Shown: positions 14,252 through 30,049 of the stretch, piece by piece
Position numbering within the stretch: the first letter of the stretch is position 1
Layout: the number at the start of each line of letters is the position of its first letter
NCBI GenBank assembly: GCA_024698805.1
Contig: JAILQT010000111.1
Coordinates: 1-45,361, forward strand
Source of the DNA: Solobacterium sp.
Lineage (GTDB): Bacteria; Bacillota_I; Bacilli_A; Erysipelotrichales; Erysipelotrichaceae
Direction of reading: 5' to 3'
Length of the DNA: 45,361 nt
The notes under the pieces: generated by a model
Told to the model about the DNA's origin: nothing
What the model saw: only the letters and a program-made list of their open reading frames with translations
Database searches by the model: none
Made by a program: the position numbers and the translations under genes

Positions 14252-16819
14252 ATGAATAAGTACATGAGTAAGGCTGTCAGTGCTTTTATTGTGCTGGCTC
14301 TTGCAGGCTGCACGGGTGCTTCTTCATCTGCAGGCGGCTCATCCGCTGCAGGAAGTGAAGGCGGCATCTACACAGCCGGTACGTACACAGCTTCCGCAGA
14401 CGGCAAGAACGGTCCGGTCACAGTCGAAGTCGTATTCACGGCAGACAAGATCGAATCCGTAACCGTTACGGAACACGCTGAAACAGCAGGCATCGCTGAT
14501 CCCGCACTCGAGAACATCCCGAAGGCGATCGTTGATGCACAGAGCGTCAAGGTCGACGGCGAAAGCGGCGCAACGATCACATCCGATGCGATCAAGGCGG
14601 CAGTCGCTGATGCGATCAAACAGGCAGGCGGCGACCCTGAGGCCGGCGGCGAGCAGGGAAGCGAAGAAGGCGGCGAGACAGCTGCCCTCACATTCACACC
14701 CGGCACATACACAGGCACAGGCACAGGTTATAACGGACCTGTCGAGATCGACGTAACATTCTCTGAAGACGCAGTTACAGACATCCAGGTCAAGACATCC
14801 GCTGAAACAGACCATGTTGGCACACTGGCATATGACCTGATGATCCCGGATATGCTGGAAGCCAACGGCTCCGGCGTAGACGCGATCTCCGGCGCAACAT
14901 TCACATCTGCTGCACTCAGGGCTGCTGTCAATGACGCTGCAGAGCAGGCAGGTGCGTCTGATCTTTCTGCTTTCAAGAAGAACACGGTCGTTCACGAAGC
15001 AGGCGATCCGATCGATGAGACATATGACGTCGTCATTGTCGGTGCAGGCGGTGCCGGTATGGCTGCTGCAGCACAGGCTGCACAGGACGGCAACACTGTC
15101 CTCGTTATCGAAGAGAACGCTGAGATCGGCGGAAACACACTCGTATCCGGCGGCCAGTACCAGTCCGTAATGCCTTACCTCGTATGGGATCCCGCAGATC
15201 CGGAAGCGACAACAGGCGAATGGAGAGGCCAGACTTACAACAAGGTCGTTGAACCCAAGAACACACTGGATGAGCTCCGCATCATTGCCAACTGGTCCGA
15301 AGAGCCTTTTGATGAAGACTACTACAAGGATCATGAATTCGTCGCAGGTGATACAGTTGAACTCTCCAAGCACGGTGTCCATGAAGAATACCTGCAGACA
15401 CTGAAAGACCTGAAGGCAGAGATCAATGAATACCTGACATGGGCAGACGCAAAGATCGCTGCAGGCGCAAACGAAGTCACACTGTTCTCCACAGTCAACC
15501 TCCACATCTTCCAGACATACTACGGCGGACTCCGTCCGACAGCAGACATGTCCGAATGGATGTACGGCGACTATGACCTCGTAAGCCAGTTCATCAAAGA
15601 CGGCCAGGATCTCAAGCCGTGGCTTGAAGACCAGGGCGCGCTGTTCATCGAAGACACACAGCCTACACTGATCGGCGCCCTGTGGTACAGGGAAAATGAA
15701 TTTGCCGGTGCAGAGATCGACGGCGAGACGATTCCCGGCAGATGGGGCACATACTTCATGGCTCCGAGGAACACGCTGCTCAAGACATCCGAAACAGCTG
15801 ACCAGAACAGGATCCTGACAAGGACAAAGGCGGAATCCCTGATCGTTGAAGACGGCAGGGTAACAGGCGTCAAGGGAACGATGTTCGACGGCACGGAAGT
15901 CACAGCTCACGCAACAAAGGGCGTTATCCTGACAACGGGCGGCTTCGCTGCCAATATCGATATGGTCCTGGAAAACAACCAGTACTGGGACAGCGAATAT
16001 CTGACAAAGCAGACAAAGACAACGAACCGTTCCTCACTCGTAGGCGACGGTATCGCGATGGGTGAGGAAGCAGGCGCTGCAGTGACAGGTCTGAACTTCA
16101 CACAGCTGATGCCGATCTCCTGGGTCGACAACGGCAACCTCGCATTCGGCGCAGGCAACTATGCAGTATGGATCAACCCCGAGACCGGCAAGCGTTTCGT
16201 TGATGAGACATCCGAGCGTGACGTCCTGTCCCTGGCTGAATTCAGGAACGGCATGGAAGTCAACGGCACTAAGGGTGTCTTCGTTGAGATCTACAACAAG
16301 GAACAGCTGATGCCCGCCCCGATGCAGCTGGCTGAAGGCGACTACGAAGGCAGATACTACAGGATCAAGATCGACCAGCTGGGCGACCTCTTCGAGAAGA
16401 TCGGCGTAAGTGCGGATCCTGCAGTCGTCAGACAGACGATCGAAGAATATGACCAGGCTGTCATCGAAGGGAAAGCGATCGAAGAATTCCCTGATGTCAA
16501 GAAGACAAATGCGAACAGGACGATCGGCAACTGCGAGAAAGATGAGTCCGGCGCCTATATCGCTGACACATATGACCTCGACAATGCAGAGCTGACAGTC
16601 CGTCTGATGGCTCCGTCAACACACCACACGATGGGCGGCCTCAAGGTCGACGTCGACCGTCATGTCCTCGATACAGACGGCAATGTCATCCCGGGCCTCT
16701 ACGCTGCAGGTGAAGTCACAGGCGGGATCCACGGCGGCAACAGACTCGGCGGCAACGCGATCGTTGAGATCTTCGTATCCGGCCGTACAGCTGCCAAGGC
16801 AGTTACAGCGGACAACTGA
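14252..16819 (+). CDS. secreted lipoprotein flavin reductase (fumarate/urocanate reductase-like), two FMN domains
   Basis: An 855-residue extracellular lipoprotein. The signal peptide ends in the lipobox LAGC with the lipidated Cys at 20, followed by a Ser/Ala/Gly linker. Two tandem FMN-binding domains follow, each with an ApbE-type flavinylation motif: DGESGAT (Thr108) and DAISGAT (Thr216). The FAD domain starts with VIVGAGGAG near 261-269. Fumarate-reductase-type catalytic residues are present: Arg656 in ERDV, His791-His792 in HHTMGG and Arg831 in NRLGGNA. It probably reduces an unsaturated organic acid, taking electrons through the FMN domains from a membrane carrier. The gene is rich in ACA, GCA and GTC codons compared with its neighbours, suggesting high expression. 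The substrate cannot be read from sequence. Confidence 0.85.
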   Translation: MNKYMSKAVSAFIVLALAGCTGASSSAGGSSAAGSEGGIYTAGTYTASADGKNGPVTVEVVFTADKIESVTVTEHAETAGIADPALENIPKAIVDAQSVKVDGESGATITSDAIKAAVADAIKQAGGDPEAGGEQGSEEGGETAALTFTPGTYTGTGTGYNGPVEIDVTFSEDAVTDIQVKTSAETDHVGTLAYDLMIPDMLEANGSGVDAISGATFTSAALRAAVNDAAEQAGASDLSAFKKNTVVHEAGDPIDETYDVVIVGAGGAGMAAAAQAAQDGNTVLVIEENAEIGGNTLVSGGQYQSVMPYLVWDPADPEATTGEWRGQTYNKVVEPKNTLDELRIIANWSEEPFDEDYYKDHEFVAGDTVELSKHGVHEEYLQTLKDLKAEINEYLTWADAKIAAGANEVTLFSTVNLHIFQTYYGGLRPTADMSEWMYGDYDLVSQFIKDGQDLKPWLEDQGALFIEDTQPTLIGALWYRENEFAGAEIDGETIPGRWGTYFMAPRNTLLKTSETADQNRILTRTKAESLIVEDGRVTGVKGTMFDGTEVTAHATKGVILTTGGFAANIDMVLENNQYWDSEYLTKQTKTTNRSSLVGDGIAMGEEAGAAVTGLNFTQLMPISWVDNGNLAFGAGNYAVWINPETGKRFVDETSERDVLSLAEFRNGMEVNGTKGVFVEIYNKEQLMPAPMQLAEGDYEGRYYRIKIDQLGDLFEKIGVSADPAVVRQTIEEYDQAVIEGKAIEEFPDVKKTNANRTIGNCEKDESGAYIADTYDLDNAELTVRLMAPSTHHTMGGLKVDVDRHVLDTDGNVIPGLYAAGEVTGGIHGGNRLGGNAIVEIFVSGRTAAKAVTADN

Positions 16820-17785: not shown

Positions 17786-19630
17786 ATGAAAAGAAAATTC
17801 GGTTTTCTGCTTGCGCTCGCTCTTTTTCTGAGCGCATGCAGCACACCTGCAGGCTCTGCAGGTTCTTCAGCAGCGCCGTCTTCAGCCGGTTCGGAAGAGA
17901 CTTCCGGAGAAACACCTGAAGAAACTCCCGAAGAGACATCGGAAGAAACGGCAGCTGCGCTGACACCCGGTACATATACCGGCACGGCAATGGGCTTCCA
18001 TGACAATGTGACTGTGGAAGTCGAAGTCGATGAGACATCGATCCTTTCCGTTACAGTCACAGACTCAAAGGAAACAAAGTATATCTCTGACAATGCGATC
18101 GAGAAGCTCCCGCAGGACATCGTCGATGCACAGTCGGTCAATGTTGACCTGTACACAGGCTGCACGGTCTCCAGCTTCGCCGTACGCGCTGCCGCAAAGG
18201 CAGCCCTTGAACAGGCAGGCGATATCTCCGCATTCAATGCGAAGCCGGAAAAACCTGCTGCGACAGACGAGGAGCTTGAGGCGGATATCGTCGTCATCGG
18301 CGGCGGCCAGGGCGGTCTTGTATCGGCGATCACAGCAGCGGAAGCAGGCAGAAAAGTCATTCTGCTTGAGAAGCTCGACAGGCTCGGCGGCAGCACCGTC
18401 GAAAGCGGCGGCATCTTCTATGCGACGAACTCCCCGGTCAACGGCGACCAGGACAATGATCCCGAAGATATGGTCAGATACTGGCAGGAAAGGGCGGAAG
18501 GAAACGCAGATGAGAATATGCTGAGGATCGCAGCGGAAGGCTCCGGCGAATCCGTTGCCAAACTGCAGGAATGGGGCGTTATCTTCGCAGATGAAGTCGG
18601 AACAGCAGGCACTTCACCGGCGCTCAGGGCACACTACGCATCCAATGCGGAAGCTGCAGGCGCTTCGACAGACGGCGTTGACTTCATCGTCCCGCTGAAG
18701 GATAAGGCAGCAGAGATCGGCATCGAGATCCTGCTCGGTACAGAAGCAACAGAACTGATCAGTGAAGACGGCGCAGTCACAGGCGTCAAAGCGGTCAGCG
18801 ACGAACACAACTACACGATCAAAGCGAAGGCAGTCATCATCGCGACAGGCGGTTATGACCTTTCCAAGGAGATGATGGAAGAGCATTCGCCTGACCTCGC
18901 AGGCACATTCGCGCTCTCATCCGCCGGCAACAAGGGCGACGGCATCAGGATGGCGGAAGCAGTCGGCGCAGCGACGAACTACACCGGCGGCGTCATCGGC
19001 TTCAAGATGATCGATGTCACAAAGCACTATCTTGAAGGCTCCAACATGCTCTGCTGGCTCGGCCCGCTGGCTGTCACAAGCAAGGGTGTCCGCTTCGGCA
19101 ATGAATCCGCAGACTATCCGATCATGTGCACGCAGCTCGTCGAAGCGAGAAGGGACGGATCGAAGACATACTTCATCATTGACTCCTCCGTCGAGATGTT
19201 CAGCGGTCTTGCCGAACTGGCAGTCGCTGCGAACTGCGGCGTCAAGGCAGAAACGATCGAAGAGCTTGCCGGACTCGCCGGGATCGACGCAGAGGCACTG
19301 CAGACAACGATCGACACATACAACGCGACGGTCGAATCCGGCGAACCGGATGAATACGGCAAAGTCAACACGGCACCTGTCGTGACCGGACCGTTCTATG
19401 CGGTAGAAGTCAAGCCTGCAACACTCGGTACGATCGGCGGCCTGCTGATCAGCGAAAAGGCTGAAGTCCTCGACACGGAAGGCAACCCGATCCCGAACCT
19501 GTACGCATGCGGCGAAGTGGCGAACAGCCAGTTCCTCTATAAGGAATATCCCGCAAGCGGATCCTCCATCTCGATCACAACGACATTCGGCCGCATCGCC
19601 GGCACGGAAGCAGCCCGGAAAGCTGAATAA
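17786..19630 (+). CDS. secreted flavoprotein reductase/dehydrogenase with altered active site
   Basis: A 614-residue lipoprotein. The lipobox is LSAC (Cys18), followed by an acidic Glu/Thr/Ser/Pro linker (about residues 36-55). A single FMN-binding domain has the flavinylation motif DLYTGCT (Thr127), where the usual Ala is Cys. The FAD domain begins VVIGGGQGG at about 169-177. Unlike the neighbour at 14252, the HHTMGG segment reads TLGTIGG without histidine, NRLGGNA is replaced by ASGSSIS, and the ERD arginine segment is absent. Dicarboxylate reduction of the fumarate type is therefore unlikely. It may act on another alkene or a ring compound. SD: AAGGGGG, 10 bases upstream. Confidence 0.8.
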   Translation: MKRKFGFLLALALFLSACSTPAGSAGSSAAPSSAGSEETSGETPEETPEETSEETAAALTPGTYTGTAMGFHDNVTVEVEVDETSILSVTVTDSKETKYISDNAIEKLPQDIVDAQSVNVDLYTGCTVSSFAVRAAAKAALEQAGDISAFNAKPEKPAATDEELEADIVVIGGGQGGLVSAITAAEAGRKVILLEKLDRLGGSTVESGGIFYATNSPVNGDQDNDPEDMVRYWQERAEGNADENMLRIAAEGSGESVAKLQEWGVIFADEVGTAGTSPALRAHYASNAEAAGASTDGVDFIVPLKDKAAEIGIEILLGTEATELISEDGAVTGVKAVSDEHNYTIKAKAVIIATGGYDLSKEMMEEHSPDLAGTFALSSAGNKGDGIRMAEAVGAATNYTGGVIGFKMIDVTKHYLEGSNMLCWLGPLAVTSKGVRFGNESADYPIMCTQLVEARRDGSKTYFIIDSSVEMFSGLAELAVAANCGVKAETIEELAGLAGIDAEALQTTIDTYNATVESGEPDEYGKVNTAPVVTGPFYAVEVKPATLGTIGGLLISEKAEVLDTEGNPIPNLYACGEVANSQFLYKEYPASGSSISITTTFGRIAGTEAARKAE

Positions 19631-21986: not shown

Positions 21987-22637
21987 ATGAGCAACAGTTT
22001 ACTGGGCCTTCTTACCAGCTCACTTACACAGCAGTCTTCACTGAACGCTGCTTCAAAGAAATCCGGACTCAGCACGAGGCAGATCCTGACGATCATGTCC
22101 TATGCGCTTCCGCTGATCATGAAAGCAATGACAAAGAACGCTTCCTCACAGTCCGGCGCGACTTCGCTCCTCGGCGCCCTGACGCAGCACACAAGCAAGC
22201 GCTCTGTCGCGGAACAGATCGAGACAGCCGATACAGCTGACGGTGAAAAGATCGTTAAGCATATCTTCGGCGGCGATACATCCAATATGCTTTCGCAGAT
22301 CGCAGGCGCAACAGGCTCCGGCACACAGGAAGTATCCAGCGTCCTGAGTTCCTTCGCACCCGCACTGCTGAGCTCGCTCTCCGCTGCGACAACGACAGCG
22401 AATACGGCACAGCAGAACAAGAAGCAGGGCATCGACCTGAGCGACGGTCTCGATGTCGGCGAACTGATGACCCTGTTCGGCGGCGGCCAGCAGCAGGCAC
22501 AGCAGCAGGCTCCCGCATCCGGACTCAACAGCCTGCTCGGTGCGTTCCTCGGCGGCGGTGCACAGCCCCAGCAGCAGGCAGCCGCAGCGGATGACGGATC
22601 GGCACTGCTGTCCTCACTGCTCAGTTTCATGAAGTGA
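21987..22637 (+). CDS. DUF937 (YidB-like) protein
   Basis: A 216-residue protein with no signal peptide. The N-terminal half is alpha-helical (SLLGLLTSSLTQQ, ALPLIMKAM), matching DUF937, with the repeated element HIFGGDTSNMLSQIA and VSSVLSSFAPALLSSL. The C-terminal part is a low-complexity Gln/Ala/Gly tail (GGGQQQAQQQAP, GGGAQPQQQAAAA) around short GLNSLLGAFLGG and SALLSSLLS helices. Function of the family is unknown. The start at 21987 follows GGGAGGAAAATA. Codon choice is biased, like that of the flavin reductase, suggesting abundant expression. It is monocistronic, with its own promoter and terminator. Confidence 0.75.
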   Translation: MSNSLLGLLTSSLTQQSSLNAASKKSGLSTRQILTIMSYALPLIMKAMTKNASSQSGATSLLGALTQHTSKRSVAEQIETADTADGEKIVKHIFGGDTSNMLSQIAGATGSGTQEVSSVLSSFAPALLSSLSAATTTANTAQQNKKQGIDLSDGLDVGELMTLFGGGQQQAQQQAPASGLNSLLGAFLGGGAQPQQQAAAADDGSALLSSLLSFMK

Positions 22638-22663
22638 TCTTAAGAAAACTGCAGGCAGAAATT

Positions 22664-22694
22664 ACGGCCCCTGACCATGTCCGGGGCTGTTTTT
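22664..22694 (+). terminator. terminator after the DUF937 gene
   Basis: Stem of GCCCC (22667-22671) with GGGGC (22683-22687), extended by G-T, C-G and A-T pairs, 11-nt loop, then TTTTT. Confidence 0.75.
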
Positions 22695-22698
22695 CATA

Positions 22699-22704
22699 TA
22701 TAAT
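22699..22704 (+). promoter_or_regulatory. -10 box almost touching the helicase start
   Basis: TATAAT six bases before the ATG at 22711, with no Shine-Dalgarno sequence between. A transcript starting 6-8 bases downstream would begin at or beside the start codon, so it would be leaderless. No strong -35 is seen. Confidence 0.45.
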
Positions 22705-22710
22705 AAACAC

Positions 22711-25692
22711 ATGAACAGGGAGACGGCAGCCTCGATATTCCGCGCAGTTCATGAGGGGAAATGGCTCAGTATCGAATACCGCAATCTTCGCGGTGAACTG
22801 ACGAGATACTGGATCGCAGTGCTTGGCATCGATACCGTAAACAAACGGATCCGGTGCCGGGGTTTTCATATTGTCCGGCATCTGACTGCAGAGATGAACC
22901 TGCATCCCGGCGGCATCCTGTCCGCTTTTGTCATCGAGGGGACCATCGCCCCGGTCAATGAAGAACTGGTGAACGATATCCGGCTGGACCCGGGGAAATA
23001 TGCGGATTTCTTCCGCTTCGGCGCAAATCTCAGGATACTGGATTATTACGCTGCCTGCGCGAGGCTGGACGTCTCGCCGTATACGACGGATTATGCGCTT
23101 GTGCGGAAACTGGATGATTCCGTTTTTGAGAACGGCCGGATCCGGCTGTCCGATGAGCAGTTCGACGCGATCGTCCGGGATTTCCAGATGAAAGGCTCCC
23201 TGGAAACAGGCCGTCTGCGCATGCAGGAGCTCGGCATGAACCTGCTCAGCATCTATGACAGGAAAGGCATCTATGTGCTTGCCTACAGACCCCTCTATCT
23301 CAATGTCGAAGAACATACGCTCGCAGCCGGGACACAGACTGTCGTATGCAGGGAGTTCACTGTGAACGGCAGGAGGGAGAGCATCCGCAGGTTCCTCAGC
23401 GAGGAGGATATGGTCCTGACGGAAGATTTTGCCCGGAATGCCGAGATCATCAAAGACCTGATCATGGAAAGAAACCGCGCATGGATGATCGACGACATGC
23501 CGTATGTCATCGCCATCGGCAGGGATATGCCTGTCGACCTCAGAAAGGAATACGCCGGCATCATGCGGATGATGGAAAACGGTGAGCCGACGCAGGTCAT
23601 CCGCGCTTTCTTCGGCGACCTCTGCGACAGCACGGCCATGCATAAGGCTGTGCCGCTGATCTGTACGGATGACCGCATCAACATGGACCAGATGATCGCC
23701 GTCAACCACGCCCTGCGGCGCGATCTTTCCTATGTGCAGGGGCCGCCCGGGACAGGAAAGACGCAGACGATCGTCACGACGCTCATCAGCTGCCTGTTCG
23801 CAAACAGGACGGTCCTGCTGGCATCCAACAACAACCACCCGATCAATGCCGCATTCGCAAAGCTGAAGTCCCTGACGTGGAAGGGACAGGAGATCCTGAT
23901 GCCTGCCGCAAGACTCGGAAACCGGATCGAAACGGAAAAGATGCTGCAGGAGATCGGCCGCATGTACCGGATCGCCCGGAACATGAAAGATGTGAAGTAT
24001 CCGCCGCGGCCGAAGCAGGAGAATGCCGCAAAGCTTTCGCGCTACCTGCAGGAATACGAAAAGCTCGTGGAGATCCGGGAGAAGAAGGAGACGCTGGAGA
24101 CCCTGCTCGAAAGCAGCGACCAGATGAACTTCCAGATCCGGCTCCAGACAGACCAGCTGCCGGCCCTGAATGAGAAGCTTGCGCAGATGGACAGCTATAC
24201 GCCGGAAAATGCAAGGAAGCTGCTGAGCACGGATCCGGATGAACTGCTTCATTACCTGTATATGGACGGCATCCGCCGCATGCGCAGGCTGGCACAGCCG
24301 CAGTATAAGGAACTCCGGGATATCCTGGGCGCACAGACCGAAGACAGGACGGCCGTTTTCAACCGCTGGCTGTCCGTACAGGAGAATCTCGAACTCTTCC
24401 TGAATGTATTCCCGATCGTCGCAACGACGTCTGTCTCCGCCTTCCGGCTCGGCCAGCCGCAGCCATCTTTTGATCTTGCGATCATCGATGAGGCGAGCCA
24501 GTGCAGCACGGCGATGAGCCTGCTCCCGGTGATCCGGGGGAAAAGGCTGATGCTTGTCGGGGATCCCCAGCAGCTGAGCCCGGTCATCCTGCTGAGCGAA
24601 GAGGACAATGCCGTCCTGCGCACGAAATACGGCATCCGCGAAGAATATGACTACATAAAGAATTCGATATACAAGACGTTCCTCGCATGTGACGCCGTCA
24701 GCGATGAAGTGCTGCTGCGCTTCCATTACCGCTGCGATCCCGCGATCATCGGCTTCAATAACCACAAATACTACTGCGACAGGCTGCTGATCTCTTCCGA
24801 AGCGGGGGAGGACCCGCTCGTCTTCATCGACGTGGACAGGAACCCGGCCTATGAAAAGAATACGGCTCCTTCGGAAGTGCAGGAGGTCGTCGAATGCGTC
24901 CGCAGATACGGTCAGGATGACATCGGCATCATCACACCGTTCACGGCGCAGAGGAACATGATCCGGGACGTACTGAACGTAAACGGCTTCAGCCGTACGG
25001 AATGCGGCACGGTCCATGCGTTCCAGGGGGATGAGAAGGATACGGTCGTTTTCTCCCTCGCCCTCAGCGACAGGACGGCGCCGGCGACGTATGACTGGCT
25101 GAAAAACAACAGCGAACTGATCAATGTGGCTGTTTCCCGCGCGAAAAAAAGACTGATCCTGATCGGCAGCGCCAGACAGCTGGAACGGCTGCATACAGGA
25201 TGTACGGAGGATGACCTGTACGACCTTTATGCGTATATCCGCTCCAGGGGCACGGCAGCCGTCGCCTCAAAGAAAACTTCTTCCCGGGCACTGGGCATCC
25301 GTCCGTACAGCACGTCGGTCGAGGAAGCGTTCCTGACGACCCTGAATCATGCGCTGGAGAATGCCTTCCGCAGCAGGCGGGGATTCATCGTCCACAGGGA
25401 AGTGCCTGTCGCGCATGTCTTTGCGGACGATCCTGTCCGGGATGACTATTTTTACCGCGGAAGGTTTGATTTCGTGGTGTACGAAAAGAAGGGAAGCGTA
25501 CAGCTCCCCGTGCTCGCGATCGAACTGGACGGCATGGAACATATCGGTGATGAACATGTCCGCAAAAGGGACAGGAAGAAGGAATCCATATGCCATGAGC
25601 ACGGATTTGAATTGATTCGTGTCGAAAATACCTACGCAAGAAGGTATCATTATATCAGGGAGATACTGATCCGCTACTTCCGCGGAAAGTAA
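22711..25692 (+). CDS. WYL-like / SF1 helicase / nuclease-like fusion, defence or repair candidate
   Basis: A 993-residue multidomain protein. Residues about 5-60 (IFRAVHEGKWLSIEYRNLRG...) look like a WYL-type sensor fold. About 150 unassigned residues follow. An UPF1/DNA2-like SF1 helicase then begins with Walker A GPPGTGKT at 344-351, Walker B IIDEASQ at 591-597, GDPQQLSP, a late VHAFQGDEKDTVVFS motif and the motif VI segment VAVSRAKKRL. An internal insertion of about 150 residues of coiled coil lies after motif Ia. The last ~120 residues resemble DUF2726/VSR-like PD-(D/E)xK nucleases, with FDFVVYE and AIELDGMEH as candidate D and ExD metal ligands. No partner gene is adjacent. Confidence 0.75.
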   Translation: MNRETAASIFRAVHEGKWLSIEYRNLRGELTRYWIAVLGIDTVNKRIRCRGFHIVRHLTAEMNLHPGGILSAFVIEGTIAPVNEELVNDIRLDPGKYADFFRFGANLRILDYYAACARLDVSPYTTDYALVRKLDDSVFENGRIRLSDEQFDAIVRDFQMKGSLETGRLRMQELGMNLLSIYDRKGIYVLAYRPLYLNVEEHTLAAGTQTVVCREFTVNGRRESIRRFLSEEDMVLTEDFARNAEIIKDLIMERNRAWMIDDMPYVIAIGRDMPVDLRKEYAGIMRMMENGEPTQVIRAFFGDLCDSTAMHKAVPLICTDDRINMDQMIAVNHALRRDLSYVQGPPGTGKTQTIVTTLISCLFANRTVLLASNNNHPINAAFAKLKSLTWKGQEILMPAARLGNRIETEKMLQEIGRMYRIARNMKDVKYPPRPKQENAAKLSRYLQEYEKLVEIREKKETLETLLESSDQMNFQIRLQTDQLPALNEKLAQMDSYTPENARKLLSTDPDELLHYLYMDGIRRMRRLAQPQYKELRDILGAQTEDRTAVFNRWLSVQENLELFLNVFPIVATTSVSAFRLGQPQPSFDLAIIDEASQCSTAMSLLPVIRGKRLMLVGDPQQLSPVILLSEEDNAVLRTKYGIREEYDYIKNSIYKTFLACDAVSDEVLLRFHYRCDPAIIGFNNHKYYCDRLLISSEAGEDPLVFIDVDRNPAYEKNTAPSEVQEVVECVRRYGQDDIGIITPFTAQRNMIRDVLNVNGFSRTECGTVHAFQGDEKDTVVFSLALSDRTAPATYDWLKNNSELINVAVSRAKKRLILIGSARQLERLHTGCTEDDLYDLYAYIRSRGTAAVASKKTSSRALGIRPYSTSVEEAFLTTLNHALENAFRSRRGFIVHREVPVAHVFADDPVRDDYFYRGRFDFVVYEKKGSVQLPVLAIELDGMEHIGDEHVRKRDRKKESICHEHGFELIRVENTYARRYHYIREILIRYFRGK

Positions 25693-25703
25693 GAGGCATA
25701 TAT

Positions 25704-26405
25704 ATGTCCTATATAGAATTCAGAAACGTACGCAAGGAATACATTATGGGGGAAACAAGCATCCTTGCACTCAGGGATGCGTCCTTTCACGTGGAAAAAG
25801 GCGAGCTTGCGGTCATACTCGGCTCAAGCGGCGCCGGGAAAACAACAGCGCTGAATATCCTCGGCGGGATGGACAGGGCTACGTCCGGCTCCGTCATCGT
25901 CGACGGCAGGGATATCGTAAAGCTGAACAACAGGGACCTTGTCACATACAGACGGCATGACATCGGCTTTGTATTCCAGTTCTACAACCTGGTGCCGAAT
26001 CTGACAGCGCTTGAGAATGTGGAGTTCGCAACGCAGGTCAGTTCCAACGCGCTTGATCCGAAACAGACGCTCGTCAACGTCGGCCTCGGGGACAGGCTGG
26101 ACAATTTCCCTTCCCAGCTTTCCGGCGGCGAACAGCAGCGCGTCTCCATCGCCAGGGCAGTTGCGAAGAATCCGAAGCTCCTTCTCTGCGACGAGCCTAC
26201 CGGCGCGCTCGACTACGCGACCGGCAAGCAGGTCCTGAAGCTCCTGCAGGACACTTGCCGCAGGGACGGCATCACCGTCCTGATCATTACACACAATACC
26301 GCCCTTGCGCCGATGGCCGACAGGCTCATCCGGTTCCGGAGCGGCCAGGTGATCGAGGAGAAGACCAACCCGTCACCTGCAGATATTGAGGATATTGAAT
26401 GGTAA
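25704..26405 (+). CDS. ABC transporter ATP-binding protein (MacB/LolD type)
   Basis: A 233-residue ATPase. Walker A is GSSGAGKT (40-47), with a Q-loop in [20 protein letters not shown], the signature LSGGEQQR, Walker [10 protein letters not shown] and the H-loop ITHN. The [13 protein letters not shown] pattern is typical of MacB/LolD ATPases, which work with FtsX-like permeases and do not carry solutes through a conventional channel. It overlaps the permease gene by 7 nt. The start at 25704 has AAGAGG upstream. Confidence 0.92.
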
Positions 26406-29400
26406 GAAGGGCCGCTGACAAGGATATCCTGCGGACAGTCCGGGAACAGTTCAAGCGGTTTTTATCGATCGTGATGATCACGCTTCTCGGCGTCATGATG
26501 TTCTCCGGACTCAAAGCAGCCTGCGAAGATCTGCGTATATCCGCAGATGTCTTTTTCGATGCGCAGAATCTCCATGATATCTATATCCAGTCGACACTGG
26601 GCATCACGGAAGACGACATAAAGGTACTGCAGGACATGGAGGATACCGAACGGGCGGAAGGCATATTCGCCAAGGATGTCACATGCCGACTGAACGGGGA
26701 ACAGACGGATTTCCTCATCGAGACGCTGCCGCAGAAGATCGATATCCCGTATGTGACGAAGGGCAGGCTGCCGGAAAACAGGAATGAAGCGGCAGTGACC
26801 GAGAAGTTCATACACGATACCGGCGCAAAGATCACGGACGTGATCACTTTCAGCGACGAAGACTTCGCTGCGGTCTCGCTGCAGATCACAGGCATCGTGA
26901 CCGATGTGCGGGATATCAACAATCCCTACGGCGCCGTCTCGTACAGGACGGCTTTCAACGGCAACAATACGGTATATGTAGTCCGGGATGCGGTGTCCGC
27001 CGATATCTATACCGCGGCTGCAGTGACCGTAAAGGGCGCAGAAGAACTGCATACCTTCAGCGATGAATACAGAACGCATGTCCGTGAATACAAAGCAGAG
27101 CTGGAAAAGGTGATCAAGCCGGAACGCGAGCAGGCAAGGACAGACGAAGTCAAAGACGAGGCACAGCAGAAGATCGACGATGCCGAAGCGGAAGCGGAAG
27201 AGGAACTTGCGGATGCCGAAAAAGAACTGAACGATGCCGAAAAGGAATGGGAAGACGGCAGGCAGGAACTGGAAGACGCCGAAAAAGAATGGAAAGACGG
27301 GAAACAGGAACTGGACGATGCCGAAAAAGAACTGAATGATAAAAAAGAAGAGGCCGACCGTGAGATCCGCGATGCGCAGGAAACGATCGATGAGAACCGG
27401 CAGAAGCTGAAAGACGCGCAGGATGAGATCGACAAAGGCCGCAGGGAACTGGAAAACGGCAGGAAAGAACTGCAGGACGGACAGAAGAAGCTTGATCAGA
27501 AAAAGAAAGAGACAGAGAAGGAATTCGCCGATGCAAGGATCCGGCTCAACGAAGCCCTGAAACAGGCGGCGGAAGGGATCTCACAGGCGGAAGGTGCGAA
27601 GCTGCAGTTCCACGAAGCGCTCCAGCAGCTGCAGATGGGCCTTCCCGCATCGTTCGACGTCTATGAGTCCGCATACGAAGAAGCATATTACAAAGCCCTG
27701 ACGCAGTACGGGGAAGAAAAAGCGATCCCCGCAGAGACCGCCGCAAAAATGGGCGCGAAGGAAGCACTCGCACTGCAGCAGGATATCACCGGTATACAGA
27801 CAGGGATCGCCGGCATGTGCGCGCAGCTCGAGCAGGCTTATGAAGGTTATACGGCATACGGCATGCAGGAGGAAGCGGACGCAGCCCTGGCGCAGAAGAC
27901 GCAGCTTGAGACAATGTCCGCTTCGCTGGATATGGTCCCCGCAGCCGCGGCAGGCCTCGGCAAAGGCAAAGGCACGAAACGGTGGATCGACGACCAGGTC
28001 ACGCTTCTGGCGGAAAAGGAGAAAGAGGCGCTGCTGGCTTTTAAGGAAGCGCAGGATGAGATCGATGCGAATGCGGAAAAGCTGGAAAAAGCCGGTCAGG
28101 AGCTGCAGGATGCCGAACAGGAAGTAAAGGACGGCCAGCAGGAACTGGCTGACGGCCAGCAGGAGCTGGATGATAAGAAGAAGGAAGCCGAAGATAAGAT
28201 CGCCGAAGCCGAACAGGAGATCGCCGATGCCAAAGCGGAACTGGATGATGCCGAACAGGAGATCGCCGATGCCAGGGAAGAGCTGGATGACGCGAGACAG
28301 GAGATCGACGACGGCTGGGAAGAGTATTACGACGGCAAGGCGGAAGCGGAAGAAAAGATACAGGATGCCAGGGATGAACTGGCGGATATCAAGGATGCCG
28401 TATGGTATGTGCAGGACAGGACGAGCCTGGGCGGCTTTGCGAATGCCCAGAGCGACGCAGGTGCGATCGAGTCGATCGGCACTGTTTTCCCGGTCATCTT
28501 CTTCATCGTTGCGATCCTGATCTCGCTTACGGCGGTGACGCGAATGGTCGAAGAGGAAAGGGGCCTGATCGGCACCTATAAGTCCATCGGCTACAGGAAT
28601 ACGCAGATCATGAGGAAATACATCCTCTTCAGCCTGTCCGCCGCAGTGATCGGATCCGTTCTCGGCACGCTGATGGCATTCATCGCGCTGCCGATGTTCA
28701 TATGCACATTCTTCCGGATCATGTATCTGATACCGGACTATGACGTGTATTTCATTCCCGCGTACGGCGTGCTCGGACCGGCACTGTTCCTGCTGGGGAT
28801 CCTGGCAGCTGTCATCATGGCCTGCAGGAACGAACTGAAGCAGGTGCCTGCCGCTTTGATGCGCCCGAAAGCGCCGCGGGCAGGTTCCAAGACATTGCTG
28901 GAAAAGATCCCTTTCATCTGGACGAAGCTGTCCTTCCTGAACAAGGTCACTGCCAGGAACATCTTCCGCTACAAAAAGAGGATGTTCATGACGATATTCG
29001 GCATTGCCGGCTGTATGTCGCTGCTGTTGTTCGGATACGCGATCCGTGACTCCGTCCGTGACCTGATGCCGCGGCAGTATGAAATGACGACCGTATACGA
29101 TGTCATGGCTGCGGCGGATGCCGATGAGATGGATGAAGTGCGCACACTTCTCGAAAATGATGCCGAAGCGGAGGACATGACGGAGATCATGGTCACGAAC
29201 GTGCGCCTGGAGCACGGCGGCAGGGAAGAGGGCATCCAGATGATCGTCATCCGCGATCCGCAGCACTTCCCGGGATTCGTGCACCTGTATGATCTGGGTG
29301 ATGAAGAACTGCATGCGGAGGACGGGAAAGTATATATCACGCAGAACGCTGCCAATGTACTGCATTTTAAAGCCGGGGAAATTGTCCGTGTCCAGCAGCC

Positions 29401-30049
29401 GGATCTTTCCAAAGCGGATATCCGTGCAGACGTGCTTGTCCGGAACTATCTGGGCAACTATATATACATGACGGAAAAGACGTATCACGAATACTTTGAG
29501 GATCTTTCGTGGAACGGGTTCCTGATCCGTACGGCCGATGGGACAGATCCGATCGCTTTCGCGCAGAAGCTGAAAAAAGACAAAAACATCATCTCAACGA
29601 TGTGCACGAAGCAGATACAGGACCAGTTCTCCGATGCGTTCCGGATGATCAACGTCGTCGTGTATATAATCATCGCAATGTCCGCAGCACTGGCATTTGT
29701 GGTATTGTTTACTCTGTCAGCGACGAATATCTCGGAAAGGGAACGCGAGATCGCGACGATCAAGGTGCTCGGCCTCTACGACCGCGAGGTGCATTCCTAT
29801 ATCGACAGGGAGACGATGATCCTGACAGTGATCGGCATCGCGCTCGGCGTCCCGCTCGGATGGCTGTTCTCGCAGGCGCTGACTTCGATCCTGAACATCC
29901 CGTCCATGTATCTGGCTGTGTCCCTGCATACATTCAGTTATGTGCTCGGTGCCGGCCTGACGGTGCTGTTTGCGCTGCTGGTCAATATCGTGATGGATCT
30001 GACACTGGATCATATCGAGCCTGCAGTGGCTCTTAAGAGTATAGAGTGA
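26399..30049 (+). CDS. FtsX-like ABC permease with giant heptad-repeat coiled coil
   Basis: A 1216-residue permease. An N-terminal membrane segment is at about 18-38. A long extracytoplasmic region holds two charged coiled coils (about 250-385 and 541-667) joined by a globular hairpin. Two FtsX membrane domains follow: about 690-830, and four segments in the C-terminal third (FGIAGCMSLLLFGYAIR, IIIAMSAALAFVVLF, IGIALGVPLGWL, LGAGLTVLFALLVNIV). The first coil contains six consecutive seven-residue units, DAEKELN, DAEKEWE, DGRQELE, DAEKEWK, DGKQELD and DAEKELN (27212-27337), with Asp first and Leu/Trp sixth. Such mechanotransmitting permeases often extrude or expel molecules, or regulate the cell wall. 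Partner ATPase: 25704. Confidence 0.87.
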   Translation: MVRRAADKDILRTVREQFKRFLSIVMITLLGVMMFSGLKAACEDLRISADVFFDAQNLHDIYIQSTLGITEDDIKVLQDMEDTERAEGIFAKDVTCRLNGEQTDFLIETLPQKIDIPYVTKGRLPENRNEAAVTEKFIHDTGAKITDVITFSDEDFAAVSLQITGIVTDVRDINNPYGAVSYRTAFNGNNTVYVVRDAVSADIYTAAAVTVKGAEELHTFSDEYRTHVREYKAELEKVIKPEREQARTDEVKDEAQQKIDDAEAEAEEELADAEKELNDAEKEWEDGRQELEDAEKEWKDGKQELDDAEKELNDKKEEADREIRDAQETIDENRQKLKDAQDEIDKGRRELENGRKELQDGQKKLDQKKKETEKEFADARIRLNEALKQAAEGISQAEGAKLQFHEALQQLQMGLPASFDVYESAYEEAYYKALTQYGEEKAIPAETAAKMGAKEALALQQDITGIQTGIAGMCAQLEQAYEGYTAYGMQEEADAALAQKTQLETMSASLDMVPAAAAGLGKGKGTKRWIDDQVTLLAEKEKEALLAFKEAQDEIDANAEKLEKAGQELQDAEQEVKDGQQELADGQQELDDKKKEAEDKIAEAEQEIADAKAELDDAEQEIADAREELDDARQEIDDGWEEYYDGKAEAEEKIQDARDELADIKDAVWYVQDRTSLGGFANAQSDAGAIESIGTVFPVIFFIVAILISLTAVTRMVEEERGLIGTYKSIGYRNTQIMRKYILFSLSAAVIGSVLGTLMAFIALPMFICTFFRIMYLIPDYDVYFIPAYGVLGPALFLLGILAAVIMACRNELKQVPAALMRPKAPRAGSKTLLEKIPFIWTKLSFLNKVTARNIFRYKKRMFMTIFGIAGCMSLLLFGYAIRDSVRDLMPRQYEMTTVYDVMAAADADEMDEVRTLLENDAEAEDMTEIMVTNVRLEHGGREEGIQMIVIRDPQHFPGFVHLYDLGDEELHAEDGKVYITQNAANVLHFKAGEIVRVQQPDLSKADIRADVLVRNYLGNYIYMTEKTYHEYFEDLSWNGFLIRTADGTDPIAFAQKLKKDKNIISTMCTKQIQDQFSDAFRMINVVVYIIIAMSAALAFVVLFTLSATNISEREREIATIKVLGLYDREVHSYIDRETMILTVIGIALGVPLGWLFSQALTSILNIPSMYLAVSLHTFSYVLGAGLTVLFALLVNIVMDLTLDHIEPAVALKSIE

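What the first reader, a model, noticed from the sequence alone, without database searches (positions are those of the whole stretch)
22711..25692. WYL-like, SF1 helicase and nuclease in one gene: candidate defence system
Single-gene helicase plus nuclease proteins are known in antiphage defence (for example Hhe, helicase with Vsr-like nuclease, from memory). Here a WYL-like sensor at the N-terminus and a DUF2726/VSR-like C-terminus flank an UPF1-type helicase with a long insertion. The gene stands alone, with its own promoter and a terminator before it. This arrangement may be undescribed.
Basis: partly seen in the sequence, partly recalled or inferred. Interest (0 to 1): 0.66.

Follow-up and report, generated by a model that had tools for sequence, protein, structure and literature searches.

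The report
Single-gene WYL-like helicase-nuclease, possible phage defence
A gut bacterium carries one gene for a protein that joins a probable nucleic-acid sensor, a UPF1-type helicase and a DNA/RNA-cutting domain; the same protein turns up sporadically across gut Firmicutes and behaves like an optional, self-contained module such as an antiphage system, though nothing yet proves that job.

Summary
One 993-aa ORF (22711-25692, +) encodes, in order, a WYL-fold barrel (residues 1-85; by predicted structure only), a UPF1/IGHMBP2-type SF1 helicase with its stalk and 1B barrel (103-849) and a helical insertion (405-566), and a DUF2726/Vsr-like PD-(D/E)xK nuclease (868-991) with its acidic residues kept. 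Full-length, colinear relatives occur in 83 of 84 loci examined (Clostridia, Erysipelotrichaceae), yet in only 10 of 70 genomes of the genus, 14 of 200 of another family and 35 of 392 of the phylum sample. No neighbour is conserved, and in five of 17 pairs compared DNA similarity stops about at the gene's ends. This is an accessory, self-sufficient, single-gene unit. Antiphage (or anti-element) defence is the best reading (about 0.5) but inferred: no defence-island enrichment was seen, and plasmid and phage collections hold no full-length copy. The R-x-x-R pair that PafBC's WYL domains need for ssDNA is not evident. WYL-SF1 and UPF1-like helicase-Vsr fusions are each in print; the three-part combination was not found. 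New variant of a known kind.

The parts
22711..25692 (+). whole gene: WYL-like / UPF1-type helicase / DUF2726-Vsr-like nuclease, 993 aa
   Evidence: full-length relatives in 83 of 84 loci
22711..22965 (+). WYL-like (Sm/SH3-type) barrel, residues 1-85: helix plus five strands
   Evidence: predicted fold; best 14 rows are WYL proteins, Z 7.3-9.8, rmsd 2.2-3.5, 77-84 aligned; no significant sequence match
23017..23670 (+). UPF1-type stalk and 1B-like barrel, about residues 103-320
   Evidence: model residues 103-849 align with UPF1 296-897 (Z 23.8) and 104-848 with IGHMBP2 (Z 23.9)
23668..23922 (+). RecA1, first part (residues 320-404)
   Evidence: AAA_11 323-627
23740..23763 (+). Walker A GPPGTGKT (344-351)
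   Evidence: translation; conserved
23923..24408 (+). helical insertion (residues 405-566) inside RecA1, at the place of a UPF1 1C-type insertion; long helices 405-423, 436-468, 472-492, 509-528
   Evidence: model secondary structure; less conserved than the core
24409..24630 (+). RecA1, second part (residues 567-640), motif II DEAS at 24487-24498
24658..25257 (+). RecA2 (residues 650-849), with VHAFQGDEKD and VSRAK motifs
   Evidence: AAA_12 652-821
25312..25683 (+). DUF2726/Vsr-like PD-(D/E)xK nuclease (residues 868-991); E897, D920, E938-x-D940, H944, D954, K957 conserved; ExD at 25522-25530
   Evidence: DUF2726 3.1e-8, 47 of 47 relatives, order helix-strand-strand-strand-helix-strand-helix, at least 97% conserved in 83 sequences
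22669..22686 (+). weak terminator-like hairpin between the DUF937 gene and this gene
   Evidence: 6 such sites found in the region, 3.1 expected

Best explanation
An accessory, single-gene helicase-nuclease of gut Firmicutes that most likely protects the cell against phage or other invading nucleic acid. Proposed working: the N-terminal WYL-like barrel and the 1B/stalk of the UPF1-type motor engage a single-stranded nucleic acid that appears during infection (ssDNA of replicating or damaged phage DNA, or RNA); ATP-driven movement along it brings the C-terminal Vsr-like nuclease to its target, which it cuts, destroying the invader or halting the host. Shown by sequence or prediction: the domain order, intact motor and nuclease residues, full-length conservation, patchy distribution, absence of a fixed partner. 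Inferred: that the WYL-like barrel is a sensor or gate, the nucleic acid recognised, the polarity, the cleavage, and the defence role itself.
For: Domains and motifs; WYL-fold N-terminus. WYL domains of PafBC, DriD and Pif1 bind ssDNA, and Pif1's is needed for helicase activity (passages of PMC11804915, PMC9964779, PMC9122601). Accessory distribution: 10 of 70 genomes of the genus, the window's own counted (3 of 41 well-assembled ones); 14 of 200 of the family of G468, a genome reached through a Lachnoclostridium locus; 35 of 392 of the phylum sample. Self-sufficiency: the largest neighbour cluster spans 23 of 83 loci with only 4 members within two genes. DNA similarity stops about at the gene's ends in five of 17 pairs compared (L066/L092 91%, downstream side only; L041/L094 85%; L026/L036 79%; L061/L096 75%; L034/L047 74%); in one of them the flanking gene (80% identical) sits elsewhere without the helicase. 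The best PADLOC relative is the helicase of Mokosh (MkoA 2e-52, helicase part only); PDC-S37 and ProA models match helicase and nuclease colinearly (residues 574-971).
Against: No defence-island signal: among 123 near neighbours (of 381 eligible) PADLOC hits were largely RecQ-like and ABC-like cross-matches, and 130 far neighbours (of 203 eligible) gave as many real-looking ones. No full-length copy on plasmids or phages; the one viral-collection locus is identical to a stretch of genome contig L047. Tree: 12 of 12 Erysipelotrichaceae rows form one clade, so transfer between families is limited. No experiment. The R-x-x-R pair needed for ssDNA binding in PafBC is not evident, so the sensing step is weak.
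Confidence: 0.5

Rival explanations
1. An accessory genome-maintenance enzyme: a Dna2/Pif1-like helicase-nuclease that processes ssDNA flaps, breaks or stalled forks under stress, carried by some lineages only.
For: WYL modules sense ssDNA in damage responses (PafBC, DriD); Dna2 is the first PDB match by sequence (5.7e-32); RecQ and OGG_N domains appear among near neighbours, 2 members each of 123; no defence-island signal; host-family-bound tree.
Against: Present in only about 7-14% of genomes searched, no fixed repair neighbour; the nuclease type and its place in the chain differ from Dna2's (recalled).
Confidence: 0.27
2. An RNA-directed helicase-nuclease: the UPF1-type motor scans RNA and the nuclease cuts RNA, as predicted for CoCoNuT systems, either for defence by host shutdown or for RNA quality control.
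For: The closest structural matches, IGHMBP2 and UPF1, are RNA-bound helicases; CnuH of CoCoNuT III-B is a UPF1-like helicase with a large helical insertion after Walker A and a fused Vsr-like nuclease, in systems predicted to target RNA (PMC11090510 passages); Sm and Hfq barrels follow the WYL rows in the fold list.
Against: No conserved McrBC-like neighbour; Vsr/DUF2726-type nucleases are usually DNases (recalled); UPF1-like helicases also act on ssDNA (PMC11090510 passage).
Confidence: 0.18
3. A gene without host benefit that merely persists and relocates.
For: Patchy; found in different surroundings.
Against: No internal stops in the matches listed, catalytic residues at least 97% conserved, no transposase or recombinase domain in it.
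Confidence: 0.05

Closest known systems
CoCoNuT type III-B CnuH (UPF1-like helicase with fused Vsr-like nuclease)
   Same: UPF1-like SF1 helicase with a UPF1-type barrel, large helical insertion after Walker A, fused Vsr-like nuclease (PMC11090510 passages)
   Different: CnuH III-B bears an N-terminal wHTH and is encoded with McrB/McrC-like CnuB/CnuC and a CnuA; here a WYL-like barrel and no conserved partner. No direct sequence comparison with CnuH was made.
Hhe (DUF4011-helicase-Vsr, single gene; description recalled)
   Same: single-gene helicase plus nuclease; matches the helicase part (NCBIfam 2.8e-16; PADLOC 3.1e-13)
   Different: Hhe model of 1,797 positions with a cut-off of 2000 bits against 58 bits here; no DUF4011 match, no WYL in its description
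ProA / PDC-S37 (large helicase-nuclease proteins)
   Same: residues 574-971 match colinearly across helicase and nuclease (1e-30 and 5.4e-32)
   Different: models of 1,903 and 1,550 positions; ProA cut-off 1500 bits against 106 here
Mokosh MkoA/MkoC
   Same: closest PADLOC helicase (MkoA 2e-52)
   Different: PLD-type nuclease in Mokosh (PMC10952713 Table 1), here Vsr/DUF2726
Pif1-WYL helicases of thermophiles (TePif1, DdPif1)
   Same: WYL barrel fused to an SF1 helicase, ssDNA-binding and needed for activity (PMC9964779 passages)
   Different: WYL at the C-terminus, Pif1 family, no nuclease
Dna2
   Same: one-chain helicase plus nuclease, UPF1-like motor
   Different: eukaryotic replication protein with another nuclease at the other end (recalled); no WYL

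Membership tests
WYL domain proteins | Sm/SH3-like barrel of WYL type | tested here: met
   predicted structure, best 14 rows WYL, Z 7.3-9.8
WYL domain proteins | sequence match to the WYL profile | tested here: not met
   none at E<1 for this protein, 4 of 64 relatives at best 0.047, hhalign Prob 3.9
WYL domain proteins | conserved basic ligand groove (R-x-x-R and neighbours) | tested here: inconclusive
   positions 7, 11, 17, 24, 32, 45 are 76-91% R/K, but none in 57-70 reaches 40% R/K (80 rows); equivalence of positions judged by eye
UPF1-like SF1 helicases | stalk + 1B barrel + two RecA domains with SF1 motifs | tested here: met
DUF2726/Vsr-like PD-(D/E)xK nucleases | profile match, core element order and acidic residues | tested here: met
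   DUF2726 over cut-off, order of elements, residues conserved
DUF2726/Vsr-like PD-(D/E)xK nucleases | nuclease activity | not testable with these tools
   needs biochemistry
Hhe | score over the curated Hhe cut-off; DUF4011 present | tested here: not met
   58 bits against 2000; no DUF4011 match
CoCoNuT | association with CnuB/McrB-type GTPase | tested here: not met
   no conserved neighbour in 83 loci
Mokosh | PLD nuclease | tested here: not met
   no PLD match in this protein's Pfam scan
antiphage defence systems | enrichment near known defence genes | tested here: inconclusive
   123 of 381 near and 130 of 203 far neighbours, no clear excess; crude gene calls
antiphage defence systems | protection against phage | not testable with these tools
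   needs plaque assays

The most novel reading that the evidence does not exclude
A self-contained, one-gene immune machine in which a diverged, Sm-like WYL barrel gates a UPF1-type motor that feeds a Vsr-like nuclease, spread as a single gene through gut Firmicutes and sitting outside defence islands, so that island-based searches would tend to miss it.
Probability: 0.35. Interest if true: 0.65.

Novelty: new variant of a known kind. Interest (0 to 1): 0.48.

Why it matters
If it is defence, it shows that a single protein can combine sensing, movement along nucleic acid and cutting, and that such genes can sit alone among ordinary genes in gut Firmicutes, out of reach of searches that rely on defence islands. 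It would also extend WYL regulation from transcription factors and Pif1 to UPF1-type helicase-nucleases. The domain boundaries given here make this directly testable by deleting or mutating one part at a time.

Tried and rejected
Housekeeping gene: rejected as a general statement, because most genomes searched lack it. Membership in Hhe, Mokosh or CoCoNuT: rejected on defining features (see Membership tests). Conserved operon partner: sought by all-against-all comparison of ORFs in 83 loci, none found. Empty site of the window's gene: the ABC ATPase-permease pair of this window occurs without the helicase before it in stretches of four same-genus genomes (G449, G444, G436, G014; two of these carry the helicase elsewhere), and DUF937 matches in five stretches are not followed by it, but the two flanks are not next to each other in any fetched stretch, so no clean empty site was shown. 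Frequent transfer between families: not supported by the tree (quick method, window row on a long branch). WYL by sequence profile: not significant. Own promoter: not found. PDB sequence search with the N-terminal alignment gave nothing better than E 0.58. The full-model fold lists show no separate nuclease row, as the helicase fills them; the nuclease was not folded alone. Papers holding DUF2726, helicase and defence: 0; DUF2726 alone: 5 listed, none read. No comparison with CnuH sequences was made. L023 was dropped because the crude caller found no whole ORF; L021, L030 and L101 were left out as duplicates in the tree and.

Full report
1. What is there. The ORF at 22711-25692 (+) encodes 993 aa. 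Pfam finds a UPF1-type SF1 helicase (AAA_11 6.8e-32, AAA_12 4.4e-22) and a C-terminal DUF2726 domain (3.1e-8, over the curated cut-off), with a weaker MTES_1575 REase match. All 47 relatives scanned have AAA_11, AAA_12 and DUF2726. Walker A (344-351), DEAS (593-596) and the nuclease residues E897, D920, E938-x-D940, H944, D954 and K957 are kept in at least 97% of 83 aligned sequences.

2. The N-terminus. No sequence method makes residues 1-85 a WYL domain: no Pfam hit at E<1 for this protein, 4 of 64 relatives at best E 0.047, and a profile comparison with eight WYL domains gave Prob 3.9, P 0.011, no better than the C-terminal control piece (P 0.012). The predicted fold does: AlphaFold2 with 64 sequences gave mean pLDDT 81.7, and the best 14 rows of the VIA list are WYL proteins (PafBC, DriD, CapW, BrxR; Z 7.3-9.8, 77-84 residues aligned, rmsd 2.2-3.5), ahead of Sm and Hfq proteins (Z up to 7.1; the lowest two WYL rows are thus tied with them). 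Foldseek ranks BrxR first, E 1.5e-3. So it is WYL-like by predicted fold. The basic groove is doubtful: no position from 57 to 70 has 40% R/K among 80 rows, while positions 7, 11, 17, 24, 32 and 45 have 76-91%. The R-x-x-R pair that PafBC needs (PMC11804915 passages) is thus not evident; the placing of positions is by eye.

3. The rest. The full model (47 sequences, mean pLDDT 81.8) aligns with IGHMBP2 (104-848, Z 23.9, rmsd 4.9, 449 aligned) and with UPF1 296-897 (103-849, Z 23.8, rmsd 4.0, 437 aligned). The long insertion (405-566) is helical and lies within RecA1; a large helical insertion after Walker A is also described for CoCoNuT CnuH helicases (PMC11090510 passages). The C-terminus (868-991) has the element order helix, three strands, helix, strand, helix.

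4. Who has it. In the window's genus 10 of 70 genomes, the window's own included, match at 1e-60; one of these (G028) is a contig-end fragment; among well-assembled genomes 3 of 41. In the family of G468 (the genome of L035, Lachnoclostridium sp. An14) 14 of 200, two being fragments. In the phylum sample 35 of 392, identity 28-54% besides the window itself. A scan of genome contigs returned the allowed 80 loci at 45-53% identity, and 83 of 84 loci examined (those 80, the window, two same-genus loci and one viral-collection locus) carry ORFs of 992-1078 aa colinear with it; L023 did not. Plasmids (72,556 records) and phages (50,697) hold no place covering 80% of it. One viral-collection contig carries it, but over 10,994 bases it is identical to a stretch of genome contig L047.

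5. How it moves. No neighbour is conserved: apart from the gene itself the largest cluster spans 23 of 83 loci with 4 members within two genes, its example resembling an ABC-type ATPase by eye. Seventeen pairs were compared. In five, DNA similarity stops about at the gene's ends (L041/L094 85%, L026/L036 79%, L061/L096 75%, L034/L047 74% on both sides; L066/L092 91%, where only the downstream side can be judged because L066's contig begins in the gene). In the other twelve similarity runs on into the flanks or resumes there. In L066's genome the Rieske-oxidoreductase gene that follows the helicase in L092 (80% DNA identity) lies on another contig with about 1.4 kb before it and no helicase there. 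The quick tree puts all 12 Erysipelotrichaceae rows in one clade (SH-aLRT 100) and needs 5 label changes for three host groups, where 2 are the least possible and shuffles average 25.1 (21 of 86 rows had no group). So the gene relocates alone but stays mostly within host families. The window row has a long branch, so its own place is unsure.

6. Defence or not. PADLOC on 123 near neighbours (within 3 kb, of 381 eligible) gave DpdF and PsyrT matches of RecQ-like helicases (2), AriA 4, mad3 3, OLD, GajA and PtuA 2 each; on 130 far neighbours (beyond 6.5 kb, of 203 eligible) mad3 7 and single matches to AbiEi, PDC-S05, PDC-S01, PDC-S23, PDC-M10B and TIR-TM (the tool shows 25 of 84 and 25 of 49 families). 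More families were matched near than far, but many are DpdF variants matched by the same two proteins. No clear excess is visible; the gene calls are crude, above all in G+C-rich contigs. Pfam among near neighbours: ordinary two-component, ABC and FMN-reductase genes, with RecQ-type and OGG_N domains in 2 each. This neither supports nor excludes defence.

7. Comparison. The best PADLOC relative is MkoA (2e-52, helicase part), then MkoC, PDC-S37 and Hhe; in NCBIfam, ProA (106 bits, cut-off 1500) and Hhe (58 bits, cut-off 2000). PDC-S37 and ProA match across helicase and nuclease. Related same-order proteins without a detected WYL exist: a 903-aa helicase-DUF2726 protein (L132) and a 1506-aa helicase-MTES_1575 protein (L134). 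In print: WYL domains combined with Superfamily-I helicase among other enzymes (PMC4012209 passage); Pif1-WYL (PMC9964779 passages); CoCoNuT III-B CnuH with fused Vsr-like nuclease and an N-terminal wHTH (PMC11090510 passages); a helicase as damage sensor for a nuclease in Hachiman (PMC12278908 passages). The three-part combination was not found by searches; I read only passages of eight papers, and supplements could not be read, so the list of WYL fusions in PMC4012209 is unchecked.

8. Verdict. A real, well conserved, accessory, single-gene helicase-nuclease with a WYL-like N-terminus. Defence is the likeliest role (0.5), repair next (0.27), RNA-directed action 0.18. New variant of a known kind.

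Noticed in passing
window 22627-25194 (-): 855-aa ORF antisense to the helicase gene, most likely a coding-bias artefact rather than a gene
   Followed up: partly
window 25704-30049: ABC ATPase plus a 1216-aa FtsX-like permease with a long coiled-coil-like middle, starting 11 nt after the helicase; the pair occurs in four same-genus genomes without the helicase before it
   Followed up: partly
window 14252-16819 and 17786-19630: two flavocytochrome-c-like FAD proteins (855 and 614 aa) around a MerR-type regulator
   Followed up: no
G026:C169:7185-7415 (L011): a second, contig-end match to the nuclease end (residues 916-992, 64% identity) in a genome that also holds a full-length copy: possibly a second copy
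   Followed up: no
L132:1438-4146 and L134:1476-5993: related helicase-DUF2726 (903 aa) and helicase-MTES_1575 (1506 aa) proteins in same-order genomes without a detected WYL domain
   Followed up: partly
L047:17458-18636: phage-type integrase-like ORF about 4.5 kb after a relative of this gene, next to a YchF-like GTPase gene (by eye)
   Followed up: no
L069, L072: records titled Bacteroidales/Bacteroides carry copies that fall among Lachnospiraceae in the tree: probably mis-binned contigs
   Followed up: no
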